A stretch of 64,000 nt of DNA from Treponema brennaborense (GTDB lineage: Bacteria > Spirochaetota > Spirochaetia > Treponematales > Treponemataceae). The position numbers and the translations under genes were made by a program. Positions 33,345-46,402 of this stretch are shown piece by piece. Position 1 is the first letter of the stretch. Each line of letters starts with the position of its first letter. The notes below the pieces were generated by a model. It was not told the origin of the DNA. It did not search any database and saw nothing but the letters and a program-made list of their open reading frames with translations. The stretch is from contig JAMPCJ010000008.1 in NCBI GenBank assembly GCA_023666275.1, forward strand, positions 62,001 to 126,000, in the 5' to 3' direction.

Positions 33345-33375
33345 TTGACAAAATTGTCGGGGGGGGGGGTATTCT
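33345..33375 (+). promoter_or_regulatory. Promoter with G11 tract in the spacer (phase-variable candidate)
   Basis: TTGACA (33345-33350) and TATTCT (33370-33375) separated by 19 bp, of which 33359-33369 are eleven consecutive G. Loss of two G would give the optimal 17-bp spacing, so slipped-strand mispairing could switch promoter strength. Treponema pallidum tpr genes are known to be controlled by poly-G tracts near their start sites. Confidence 0.7.
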
Positions 33376-33471: not shown

Positions 33472-34905
33472 ATGAAGAAACGTTTTTTTGTGCTGTTTTT
33501 TGCGGCGTTCCTGATGCTTTTGACTGCGGGATGCAGCGATGATCCGAGCGACAGCGGCACTAACGGCAATTCGACGGTAAACCCTGCCGTAAAACCCTCA
33601 AACACGCCTGAGAACAGCACGGCTCTGTCCGTGACCGCCGGCGGCGGCAGTATGACAATTGTTGTTCCCGACTCGCTGACCGGCAGCGATGCTTCCGGCA
33701 GCACCATCATAGCTTCGAAAGATGACTTGGTTAAATGCATCAAAAATATCATCAAAAAGTATGATACATTTTGCTGGGACACCGGACTTTTCAGCGAGGG
33801 CAGCGATGACGTCGCCGCCGAGTCCCTCTCTGCTTCGAGAAGCGTTTCCGCAAGCCGCGCTTCCGTGAGCAAACCGTCGGCATCGGCTATAGCAAACGGT
33901 TTCATAAAAATCACCGACTTTTTTCGGAATAACGAAGACAAGATATACGATTTCTTTGTCGCCGATAATCCGCAGTCGTTTGATTTCAGCCACAGCATGG
34001 ATTATACCGATATTTCGATACAAACGGGCGCCGATGCGTATATCGACCTTATCAGAGAATATGATGACAAGGATGCTACGCTGAATAATTACTTCGGAGA
34101 GAATGCGTCGAGCGTCATCAAGATTGCGGACAACTATGCTTCGTTTCCCAAACTGGCGTTAAAAACGAACCTCACGGGGAATGCGAATAAGACAACCCCT
34201 GCGGATTCAAACCTGGTGCTGGATATCGCCTGTGATGTGAATGCGGAAGTACATGACATTGACAATTTGATAAAAGACTTGCTTGAGGAATGGAATCGCT
34301 GCAATACGTCCTATCAGGTTACGGTTCCGTCTTCAGTCGATTTGCCGGTAAAAAGCGTTTCCGTCGGGCTGACGTGCAGTGTGAATGCCGACATAACACA
34401 GGCGCGGTATCAAAAGTGGGCGGACACAGAAGATCCTCCTTACAGATGGGATTACCATCGTGTCGAAACGGGAAATCAAAACTATCCTTATTACTGGGTA
34501 GATGATTATGAAACGATAGAGGACTACGTAGCCGCCCTGGATGCATGGCTGGAAAATGATGTCAAGAATATTTCGGGTGAAAAATGCAGCGCCGAACTCG
34601 GCTTTGCCGTTTCCGTCGCTGCCGCTCCGGACGGAAATGTTCCCGGCGGCATCATCACGCTTTCGTTTGCAAAATCATACAAACCTGCCGATATCAAGAC
34701 TTTTATACGAGATTTTTACTTGTTAGATGCTGGCGACGATCTGTACATTATCAAACAAATCGACGGCGGAACATGCACGAAGCTGACCGTCAGCGATTTC
34801 AGCGGAAACCAAAAATTCTCGCTGGGCAGCGGTCAGAATGTTATCGGCGAAATCGAAGATATTTGCGAAGACATCGAACGGAACATAGGCGAACTTATTC
34901 AATAA
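33472..34905 (+). CDS. Predicted surface lipoprotein, unknown function
   Basis: 477 residues starting after TAAGGAGAAAACAAG. Lipoprotein signal MKKRFFVLFFAAFLMLL with lipobox TAGC and Cys21. The mature start is a flexible Ser/Asp/Asn/Pro-rich linker (about residues 22-70), then a Ser/Ala-rich stretch near 110-135, then a mixed region with several aromatic residues (WNRCNTSYQVTV; YPYYWVDDYETIEDYVAAL). I do not recognise a domain. Its transcription appears controlled by the G11 promoter, which suggests a surface-exposed antigen. A second gene follows 14 nt later. Confidence 0.75.
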   Translation: MKKRFFVLFFAAFLMLLTAGCSDDPSDSGTNGNSTVNPAVKPSNTPENSTALSVTAGGGSMTIVVPDSLTGSDASGSTIIASKDDLVKCIKNIIKKYDTFCWDTGLFSEGSDDVAAESLSASRSVSASRASVSKPSASAIANGFIKITDFFRNNEDKIYDFFVADNPQSFDFSHSMDYTDISIQTGADAYIDLIREYDDKDATLNNYFGENASSVIKIADNYASFPKLALKTNLTGNANKTTPADSNLVLDIACDVNAEVHDIDNLIKDLLEEWNRCNTSYQVTVPSSVDLPVKSVSVGLTCSVNADITQARYQKWADTEDPPYRWDYHRVETGNQNYPYYWVDDYETIEDYVAALDAWLENDVKNISGEKCSAELGFAVSVAAAPDGNVPGGIITLSFAKSYKPADIKTFIRDFYLLDAGDDLYIIKQIDGGTCTKLTVSDFSGNQKFSLGSGQNVIGEIEDICEDIERNIGELIQ

Positions 34906-42640: not shown

Positions 42641-42934
42641 TTATCGGGCAAAAGCATAATCACGCAAAACGGCATTTATTTTCGTCTGGTAACCTTTGCC
42701 CTGCGCCTTGAACCAGGCAAGAACATCGCTGTCAATTCTTATGTGGATTTCCGTTTTTGTGGGCTTGTACAAGTCATTGTGAACTTCGTACCACGGACGG
42801 AATTTGGTCAGTTCTTCTGCGGTTTGTTTCGGGCAGTCGGAAAAATCAGTATTTTTGAATTTCATCACGCTTTCAACTTCCTCCGCAGTAAGCGGCGGAA
42901 GTTTTCGCAATTCATCGAGCGTCATAGTTTTCAT
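42641..42934 (-). CDS. brnA: BrnA-type antitoxin
   Basis: Antitoxin that binds BrnT and represses the pair's promoter. The ATG at 42934 follows AGGAGG on the minus strand and gives 97 residues; upstream in-frame codons lie inside brnT. N-terminal part KTMTLDELRKLPPLT and DCPKQTAEELTKFRP are family-like, and the C-terminal ribbon-helix-helix is EIHIRIDSDVLAWFKAQGKGYQTKINAVLR. Overlaps brnT by 23 nt. Confidence 0.88.
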   Translation of the reverse strand: MKTMTLDELRKLPPLTAEEVESVMKFKNTDFSDCPKQTAEELTKFRPWYEVHNDLYKPTKTEIHIRIDSDVLAWFKAQGKGYQTKINAVLRDYAFAR

Positions 42935-43199
42935 AGTATTCTGCCTCCTCATCTGGTTCAGCTTTGCGAGCTGAAATAATTCTTTTATTTCCATTGCGGT
43001 CTGTTGCAACAACGAACAAAATAAGGACATCTGACACGCGACCGATGACATTAGTCCGTTCCTCTTCAATCGTTGAATTCAGAGCGTCATACTTTTCAAT
43101 GCGCTTGTCATCAAGAAATACACGCACTGCCATTTCAAATGTTACGCCGTGCTTTTTCTTGTTTATTCGATTTTTGTTCTCGTCCCATTCAAAGGTCAT
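42912..43199 (-). CDS. brnT: BrnT-type ribonuclease toxin
   Basis: RelE-superfamily mRNA-interfering toxin. 95 residues: FEWDENKNRINKKKHGVTFEMAVRVFLDD at the start, RVSDVLILFVVATDR in the core and RIISARKAEPDEEAEYYE at the end, all BrnT features including the conserved Arg and Ser-Ala-Arg-Lys segment. AGGAACC precedes the ATG. The pair lies in an accessory stretch and is complete. Confidence 0.9.
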   Translation of the reverse strand: MTFEWDENKNRINKKKHGVTFEMAVRVFLDDKRIEKYDALNSTIEEERTNVIGRVSDVLILFVVATDRNGNKRIISARKAEPDEEAEYYENYDAR

Positions 43200-43891: not shown

Positions 43892-43956
43892 TGCTCGAAT
43901 GCACGCGCCGCGCGCATTCGATATGGTTTGTGTGCGCCGTTAAAAACAGGAGTGTT

Positions 43957-44003
43957 GGAGGGAAGAAAACCGCGCCTCGCAAGTAGAGGGGTTTCTTTCC
44001 TCC
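43957..44003 (+). promoter_or_regulatory. Strong leader hairpin before the LRR gene
   Basis: A roughly 14-bp stem, 43957-43971 with 43990-44003, around an inner CCTC/GAGG. The 3' strand TTTCCTCC is also complementary to the Shine-Dalgarno GGAGAAA (44020-44026), so two structures compete. No T-run follows. Confidence 0.5.
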
Positions 44004-44030
44004 AAAAAATATATTTTTAGGAGAAACAAC

Positions 44031-46402
44031 ATGAAAAAATGCGGAAAAATGTCGGCAGTGTTTGCCGCTTTATTGCTGACCGCGTGGGGGGGGGTATATT
44101 CTTAACCTCATGCAGCAATGACCCGGACGACGAGCCGCCGGTCAAAACGGATCCCGTCATTACGATTCCAGAGGACGGGGAAAAGGTGCTCGGTTCCGTT
44201 GATCCCGCAGATGCGGTCGGCGACGTAACGGTACCCGACGGCATAACGAGCCTCGGAGAGGGCGTATACAAAAACTGCACGGGAATGACAAGCGTAGTCA
44301 TTCCCGACAGCGTAACGGAAATCGGCAAAGATGCGTTCAACGGCTGCAGCGCACTGCAATCCGTAACAATCCCCGCCAGCGTAAAAAGCATTGGACAGAG
44401 CGCATTCTACGGCTGCACCGCGCTGACAAGCATAACAATCCCCGCGGGCATAACGGAAATGGAATACAATCCGTTCGGCGCCTGCACGAATCTTACCGAC
44501 ATAAAAGTAGCCGCGGATAATCCCGCCTATTCTTCCGAAAACGGCATTCTGTACAATAAAGACAAAACGGAATTGATAGCCTATCCCTCCGCAAAAGGAG
44601 AAATCGACTTCAATACAGACATAGCTTCCGGCGTAAAAACAATCGGGCGATACGCGTTCCGCGGCTGCACCGAACTGACTTCCGCAATAATTTCCGCAAA
44701 CGTAAAAACCATAGACAGATTTGTGTTCCTGGAGTGCACCGCTTTGGCGAGCGTAACAATCCCCGAAGGCGTAACACAGGTATCTCAAGGCGTGTTCAGA
44801 AACTGCCCTGCATTGAAGAGCATCGCGATTCCCGCAACTGCGGTGAACCATGACGGCAATCCATTCTGGGGATCGAGCGTTGCCGACATAACGGTAGCCG
44901 CAGGCAATACCAAATATACCAACAGCGATGACAAAAAAATGCTTCTTCAAAAAGACGGCAAAAAACTGTACGGCTGGCCGACTGCGGCAGGCGCTGTTAC
45001 TATATCCGAGGGCATAAAAGATATTCCCATAACACAAATCGGCAGCAACGCATTCCGCGAGTGCACGGAACTGACAAGCGTAACGCTTGCCCCTACTGTG
45101 AAATTGATCGAAAAGAATGCATTCTTCGACTGCGATAAACTTACCGAAATAAACGGACTGGAGGGAACCTGGCAGCAAGACAACAACAGCGCAGATTCGC
45201 CGGATAAAACAGTAATCAAAGAGCTTACTTTTGATATAATCAAGGAAAGAAACGGCACATATCAATTCACGCGGCTTTCCACGGAAGATCTTGACATCGG
45301 AGAAAACGGCGCGATGATCGAGAACGGCGTGCTGGTCGGCTGGGTGCCCGCACCGACGGGAAGCATCACAATTCCCGCCGGCGTATACAAAATCAACGAC
45401 GAAGCGTTCAAAGGCTGCACGGGCTTGACGGAAGTGATAATCCCCGAAGGTGTAGCGGAAATCGCGCAGGGTGCATTCCGAAACTGTACGAATCTGCAAA
45501 GCATAACGATTCCCGCAAGCGCAACGAGCATCAAAGGGCATTCGTTCCGCAGCTGCCCCAATCTCAAACACTTTACGGTAGCTGCGGACAATAAGGGAAA
45601 GTATTTTGCAAGTGCCGATGGATCAATGCTGCTCAGAGTGATATATGCCGCTTCCGATTACTATGACGAACCTGGTGCCTGCGAGTTAACTGCCTATCCG
45701 TCCGCATCGGGCGCTGCCGTAATACCCGATATCGTAACAGGGGCTGTCGACAAGCACATGTACTATATAACAGAGATCGCCTCCAATGCAATTCGCGACA
45801 ACACGGGACTGACAAGCATAACAATCCCCGGTATCGTGGAACAGATCGGAACTTGGGCGTTCGGCGGCTGCGATAATCTTGCAAGTGTGAACGCAAGCGG
45901 AACTTGGGTGCGGGCTTCGAAGAACAATAACAGCATATGGGAATTTGAAGACAAAGACGAAGAACTTACGGCAAGCAAATTGAAAACTGACAATCTGACG
46001 TATAAATTCTTCCGCACGCTGATAATTACAGACGGCGTTGTGCAATATTGCATTCATGCCCCTGCCGATGTAACAATTCCGAACGGTGTAACGAAAATCG
46101 CTGATAATGCGTTCGATAAGGTAGACGGGGATATTACGTCCGTAACAATTCCTAATGGCGTAACATATATCGGGGCGTATGCATTCAGTGACTGCGGCTC
46201 AATGATAAGCTTAACGATTCCCGCTAGTGTAACGTATATCGGCGAGGGAGCATTTGTGTACTGCACTGCACTTGAAAATATTTCGTATGCGGGTACGACG
46301 GAGCAATGGAACAACACGATTACAAAGGGAGAGAATATCTTCCCTGAAGGTAAAAAAATAACCTGCTCCGGCGGTGATGTAGAGTATACTGCTGAAAAGT
46401 AA
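44031..46402 (+). CDS. BspA-like leucine-rich-repeat lipoprotein, phase-variable, OFF as sequenced
   Basis: The well-placed ATG at 44031 (behind TTAGGAG) encodes MKKCGKMSAVFAALLLTA, a lipoprotein signal start. A tract of nine G (44086-44094) then shifts it into a stop at TAA 44102-44104. One extra G, or two fewer, would restore LTSC-SNDPDDEPP, a perfect lipobox. As written, the body is open only from a poorly placed ATG at 44039. The body of about 770 residues contains BspA/TpLRR-type repeats (SVTIPxSVxxIGxxAFxGC) in blocks separated by non-repeat segments. Such proteins are surface adhesins in oral treponemes. Confidence 0.85.

What the first reader, a model, noticed from the sequence alone, without database searches (positions are those of the whole stretch)
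44031..44130. LRR lipoprotein gene switched OFF by a G9 tract inside its signal peptide
The ribosome site and ATG 44031 start a perfect lipoprotein signal sequence, but nine G at 44086-44094 throw it into a stop. G10 or G7 would join it in frame to the lipobox LTSC and a long BspA-type repeat body. A maintained long body behind a broken start, with the break exactly at a slippage-prone tract, is the hallmark of a contingency gene.
Basis: partly seen in the sequence, partly recalled or inferred. Interest (0 to 1): 0.9.

Follow-up and report, generated by a model that had tools for sequence, protein, structure and literature searches.

The report
Poly-G switch in treponeme lipoprotein gene
A run of nine Gs inside the export signal of a surface-protein gene puts the gene out of frame, and because the same kind of run sits in the same place in many other surface-protein genes of this bacterium and its relatives, about a third in frame and two thirds out, it is very probably a random on/off switch, although switching itself was not observed.

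Summary
RBS 44019-44023 and ATG 44031 start a lipoprotein signal peptide; G9 at 44086-44094 sends it to a TAA at 44103; the lipobox LTSC and an intact 768-codon BspA-type LRR body lie in another frame.

It is not an isolated oddity. This 2.35 Mb treponeme genome has 71 G runs of 8-11, with a second peak in run length at 9. Ten readable lipoprotein genes carry the run between start codon and lipobox: 4 in frame, 6 out. Four are BspA-LRR paralogs and a fifth shares their 5' module; others encode pectate-lyase and GH5-cellulase domains. Eight further tracts lie between -35 and -10 elements, one of them in this window (33359-33369).

In sampled relatives, 28 of 33 distinct tract genes are lipoproteins with the run in or next to the signal peptide, 9 in frame and 19 out. 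The pooled in-frame fraction is 34%, as expected for a freely slipping tract and not for occasional assembly error.

Best reading: slipped-strand phase variation of surface lipoproteins. It works like OipA-type signal-peptide switches and is akin to the poly-G system of T. pallidum. Length variation within a population was not testable here.

The parts
43955..44005 (+). 51-nt near-perfect hairpin (TTGGAGGGAAGAAAACC ... GGTTTCTTTCCTCCAA) in the 5' leader; shared by the LRR paralogs and by some genes without a tract
   Evidence: RNA fold -29.3 kcal/mol for 43945-44045, z -3.7
44019..44023 (+). ribosome binding site AGGAG
   Evidence: sequence
44031..44085 (+). start codon and first part of the lipoprotein signal peptide (MKKCGKMSAVFAALLLTA)
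44086..44094 (+). G9 tract inside the signal-peptide codons: the proposed switch
44103..44105 (+). TAA stop of the ATG 44031 frame as sequenced
44102..44113 (+). lipobox LTSC, in the body frame
44096..46402 (+). intact body frame with stop, BspA-type LRR lipoprotein, out of frame with ATG 44031
33359..33369 (+). second tract (G11), between TTGACA and TATTCT with spacing 19, ahead of a lipoprotein gene at ATG 33473; a second, promoter-type switch of the same repertoire

Best explanation
This is a translational phase-variation (contingency) locus. DNA slippage at the G tract within the signal-peptide codons changes the tract length. Only one length class in three joins the start codon and the first part of the signal peptide to the lipobox and LRR body. 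In that class the protein is made, lipidated and exported as a surface BspA-like LRR lipoprotein, probably an adhesin. In the other classes only a peptide of about 24 residues is made and the gene is off. Shown: the anatomy, the out-of-frame state as sequenced, the intact body, the genome-wide excess of 8-11 G runs, the repeated placement in lipoprotein signal peptides across paralogs and genera, and a mix of frame states close to 1:2. Inferred: the slippage rate, heterogeneity within a population, surface exposure and adhesion.
For: Tract, stop, lipobox and body. Run lengths in this genome: 596, 42, 6 and 1 runs of length 4, 5, 6, 7 in 372 kb, then 26, 35, 8 and 2 runs of 8, 9, 10, 11 genome-wide; A/T runs show no second peak. 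Ten own lipoprotein genes with the tract before the lipobox, 4 in and 6 out of frame. In 195 family genomes ATGAAA-N20-50-G8 gives 305 matches against 70 for the backward control (my sums). In 33 distinct genes read in relatives, 28 have a lipobox, 9 in and 19 out of frame. Promoter-spacer tracts: 8 against 0 control matches in this genome and 8 clean cases read in detail. Length-dependent poly-G control is experimentally established in T. pallidum (PMC7864442) and reading-frame switching in signal-peptide codons in H. pylori oipA (PMC10564699).
Against: No length variation within a population was seen: no reads, and the genus holds no second genome. MutS is present, so instability cannot be put down to its absence. 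Many of the 71 tracts lie in places without an obvious role, so some of the expansion may be neutral. No good promoter was found upstream of ATG 44031. Surface exposure and adhesion rest on family resemblance only.
Confidence: 0.85

Rival explanations
1. G9 is a sequencing or assembly error; the real tract is in frame and the gene is an ordinary, always-on lipoprotein gene.
For: Homopolymers are error-prone, and several contigs of this assembly end exactly at such tracts (C4, C8, C18).
Against: About two thirds of comparable genes in many independent genomes are out of frame, far more than an error rate at G8-G10 would give. The contig breaks are explained by the near-identical module around the tracts. 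Even if this one count were wrong, a G run of 9-10 at this site would still be slippage-prone.
Confidence: 0.06
2. The protein is made at a steady low level despite G9, by slippage of RNA polymerase or the ribosome at the tract, or from the in-frame ATG 44039; the tract tunes the level and is not a heritable switch.
For: Long G runs can cause slippage (general knowledge). ATG 44039 is in the body frame.
Against: ATG 44039 lies 15 nt from the RBS and gives no signal peptide. Steady tuning does not predict the variety of frame states among paralogs and relatives, and DNA slippage at such tracts is documented in T. pallidum (PMC7864442).
Confidence: 0.06
3. The gene is a decaying pseudogene, and the G tracts are neutral products of a mutational bias in this genome.
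For: 71 tracts exist, many in non-coding or unclear positions. Neutral drift would also give about one third in frame.
Against: The body has 768 codons without a stop. Bodies of about 220-830 codons stay open behind out-of-frame tracts in lipoprotein genes of relatives. Tracts are concentrated at signal peptides and promoter spacers compared with backward controls. Paralogs keep tract and module while bodies have diverged to about 50% identity.
Confidence: 0.03

Closest known systems
Poly-G phase variation of Treponema pallidum (tprE/G/J, tprL and tp0126 promoters; TP0127 ORF): PMC7864442, PMC3373638
   Same: Same bacterial family, same repeat (8-11 G), surface proteins; the promoter-spacer class of this genome, including 33359-33369, matches the tp0126 arrangement
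   Different: The tract of this finding is in signal-peptide codons and acts on the reading frame; described T. pallidum cases are mostly promoters
Helicobacter pylori oipA (CT repeats in signal-peptide codons): PMC10564699; and, from my own knowledge, Neisseria opa (CTCTT in the leader-peptide codons)
   Same: Repeat within signal-peptide codons, frame switching of a surface protein
   Different: Dinucleotide or pentanucleotide repeats, outer-membrane proteins, unrelated bacteria; here a G run in lipoprotein signal peptides
BspA / LrrA-type leucine-rich repeat surface proteins (Pfam LRR_5)
   Same: Body is LRR_5 throughout, exported; LrrA of T. denticola is a treponemal example (own knowledge)
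   Different: I found no report of poly-G switching of BspA-like proteins in the open-access library searched

Membership tests
Simple-sequence-repeat contingency (phase-variable) locus | Slippage-prone tract, longer than chance, in coding sequence or promoter | tested here: met
   G9; none of 100 shuffles as rich in G8; separate peak at 8-11 genome-wide
Simple-sequence-repeat contingency (phase-variable) locus | Change of tract length changes expression by frame or spacing | tested here: met
   By sequence only: start and body are in different frames on either side of the tract; comparable genes occur in both frame states
Simple-sequence-repeat contingency (phase-variable) locus | Reversible length variation within a population | not testable with these tools
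   No reads, no second strain
T. pallidum-type promoter-spacer poly-G control | Tract between -35 and -10 | tested here: not met
   For 44086-44094 the tract is in coding sequence. The feature is met for 33359-33369 and seven other loci
OipA-type signal-peptide frame switch | Repeat within signal-peptide codons, body intact in another frame | tested here: met
BspA-type LRR protein | LRR_5 repeats over the curated cut-off | tested here: met
   348 bits against 27.7
Bacterial lipoprotein | Signal peptide with lipobox and cysteine | tested here: met
   LTSC found by pattern, in the body frame only; no trained predictor was available and lipidation is untested

The most novel reading that the evidence does not exclude
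Poly-G within the lipoprotein signal peptide is a general on/off design across the Treponemataceae, gut species included. It randomly displays not only adhesin-like LRR proteins but also secreted polysaccharide-degrading enzymes (pectate lyases, GH5 cellulase), so that cells of one clone divide into different foraging and antigenic types; and a shared 5' module is passed between genes with unrelated bodies.
Probability: 0.45. Interest if true: 0.75.

Novelty: new member of a known kind. Interest (0 to 1): 0.58.

Why it matters
Poly-G phase variation in treponemes is documented mainly for promoters of T. pallidum surface proteins. Here it also appears as a translational switch built into lipoprotein signal peptides, in many genes and several genera, on enzymes as well as adhesin-like proteins. 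That suggests the strategy is common in the family and not an invention of the syphilis agent. It also means that out-of-frame lipoprotein genes annotated as pseudogenes in treponeme genomes may be working genes in their off state.

Tried and rejected
A genome-contig scan with the LRR protein found no confirmed relative. The genus holds only this genome, so no strain comparison was possible. Rfam gave only sub-threshold, implausible matches near the gene (MIR2275, DnaX), and none to the hairpin in other genera. An early tally listed open-frame lengths for tract lengths one shorter and one longer; after that the piece before and the piece after the tract were read apart. The 51-nt hairpin was considered as the switch and rejected: in this genome it also stands upstream of genes without a tract, and in other genera no lipoprotein start with a tract was seen in the roughly 190 nt inspected after it. 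No good promoter was found upstream of ATG 44031, so the transcript start is unknown.

Full report
Observation. The body is 768 codons and is BspA-type LRR (Pfam LRR_5, 348 bits against a cut-off of 27.7). In the window, G8 matches exceed every dinucleotide shuffle. The G/C run lengths are seven of 5, none of 6-8, one of 9 and one of 11.

Genome-wide context. The window is part of a 2.35 Mb, 18-contig genome whose genus holds no other genome. The nearest named TrpB relatives are uncultured Treponema, many from rumen and horse faeces, at 76% identity or less; the family assignment to Treponemataceae is my inference from these. The genome has 71 G runs of 8 or more. Across 372 kb of fetched loci the tally falls steeply from 596 runs of length 4 to one of length 7, then rises to 26, 35, 8 and 2 runs of length 8, 9, 10 and 11. 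The runs of 8 and more are whole-genome counts whereas the shorter ones come from 16% of the genome, but scaling does not remove the second peak. A/T runs show no such peak.

Placement. Ten own-genome lipoprotein genes that can be read on both sides have the tract between start codon and lipobox cysteine. As sequenced, four are in frame and six are out. Two further module heads and two bodies lie at contig ends and cannot be paired. Four of the ten are BspA-LRR paralogs and a fifth, at C12:194249, shares their 5' module but has no LRR domain. Across seven copies the stretch from hairpin to tract is 64-94% identical pairwise, while the closest LRR body matches are about 50% identical in protein. 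Others carry pectate lyase (C10:72801, C13:6033) or GH5 cellulase (C11:349110) domains. Two more pectate-lyase lipoproteins (C15:134117, C18:124786) carry a tract just after the lipobox and are in frame.

Promoter class. Eight tracts lie between a TTGACA-like and a TATAAT-like element, with spacings of 15-19 nt as sequenced; most are followed by genes for exported proteins, four of them with a lipobox. One is in this window: G11 at 33359-33369, spacing 19, ahead of a lipoprotein ATG at 33473. At random positions the same criterion is met in 27 of 1880 trials. In T. pallidum tp0126, spacing set by the poly-G controls transcription with an optimum at 17 (PMC7864442).

Relatives. In 195 family genomes, ATGAAA followed 20-50 nt later by G8 occurs 305 times against 70 for the backward control, in 80 against 38 genomes (the sums and the control genome count are mine, and long runs are counted more than once). 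I fetched and read loci from the list. Of 33 distinct genes with RBS, ATG and tract, 28 have a lipobox, 9 in frame and 19 out, with bodies up to about 830 codons. Pooled with the own genome this is 13 in frame of 38, or 34%. An always-on gene family with rare sequencing errors would be nearly all in frame.

Interpretation. The most economical account is slipped-strand phase variation of surface lipoproteins, with the G run inside the signal peptide as the frame switch. The alternatives are assembly error, constant slippage rescue and neutral pseudogenes. Each explains part of the data, but none explains the combination of site, frame ratio, intact bodies and recurrence across genera. The limits are plain: no reads, no second strain, no expression data, a loose lipobox pattern in place of a trained predictor, and a sample of relatives weighted towards genomes with many tracts.

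Comparison. Mechanistically it is like oipA of H. pylori, where CT repeats lie in signal-peptide codons (PMC10564699). By lineage and repeat type it belongs with the poly-G system of T. pallidum (PMC7864442, PMC3373638), which is described mostly at promoters. A comparison of cultivable treponemes counts homopolymer tracts and notes that G and C tracts are most numerous in T. pallidum (PMC8049484). I found no description of signal-peptide poly-G switches in treponemal lipoproteins in the open-access papers searched, a library that lacks most subscription journals. I therefore call it a new member of a known kind, with a wider family-level pattern that deserves study.

Noticed in passing
window 33359-33369: G11 between TTGACA and TATTCT (spacing 19), about 100 nt upstream of a 477-aa lipoprotein gene at ATG 33473: a promoter-type poly-G switch in the same window.
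   Followed up: partly
window 43955-44005; G000 C2, C4, C8, C16, C17 and others; L108-L134 in other genera: A 51-nt palindromic hairpin element, about 8-11 copies in this genome (mostly just ahead of a ribosome site) and dispersed between genes in other treponeme genera, there often next to GTGCTGGGGAAG. It has no Rfam family.
   Followed up: partly
G000 C1:53444, C1:75466, C1:77476: Three paralogous genes for exported proteins of about 200 aa share an almost identical promoter with a C9 tract in the spacer (spacings 16, 15 and 16).
   Followed up: partly
G000 C10:72801, C13:6033, C15:134117, C18:124786, C11:349110: Lipoproteins with pectate-lyase or GH5-cellulase domains carry a G tract in or just after the signal peptide, which hints at random switching of secreted enzymes.
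   Followed up: partly
L141 and L303 (G037): In one relative, signal-peptide G tracts reach 24 and 19 residues in exported proteins without a lipobox.
   Followed up: no
window 42641-43199 (-): Two overlapping small ORFs upstream of the LRR gene look like a BrnT/BrnA-type toxin-antitoxin pair (by eye only).
   Followed up: no
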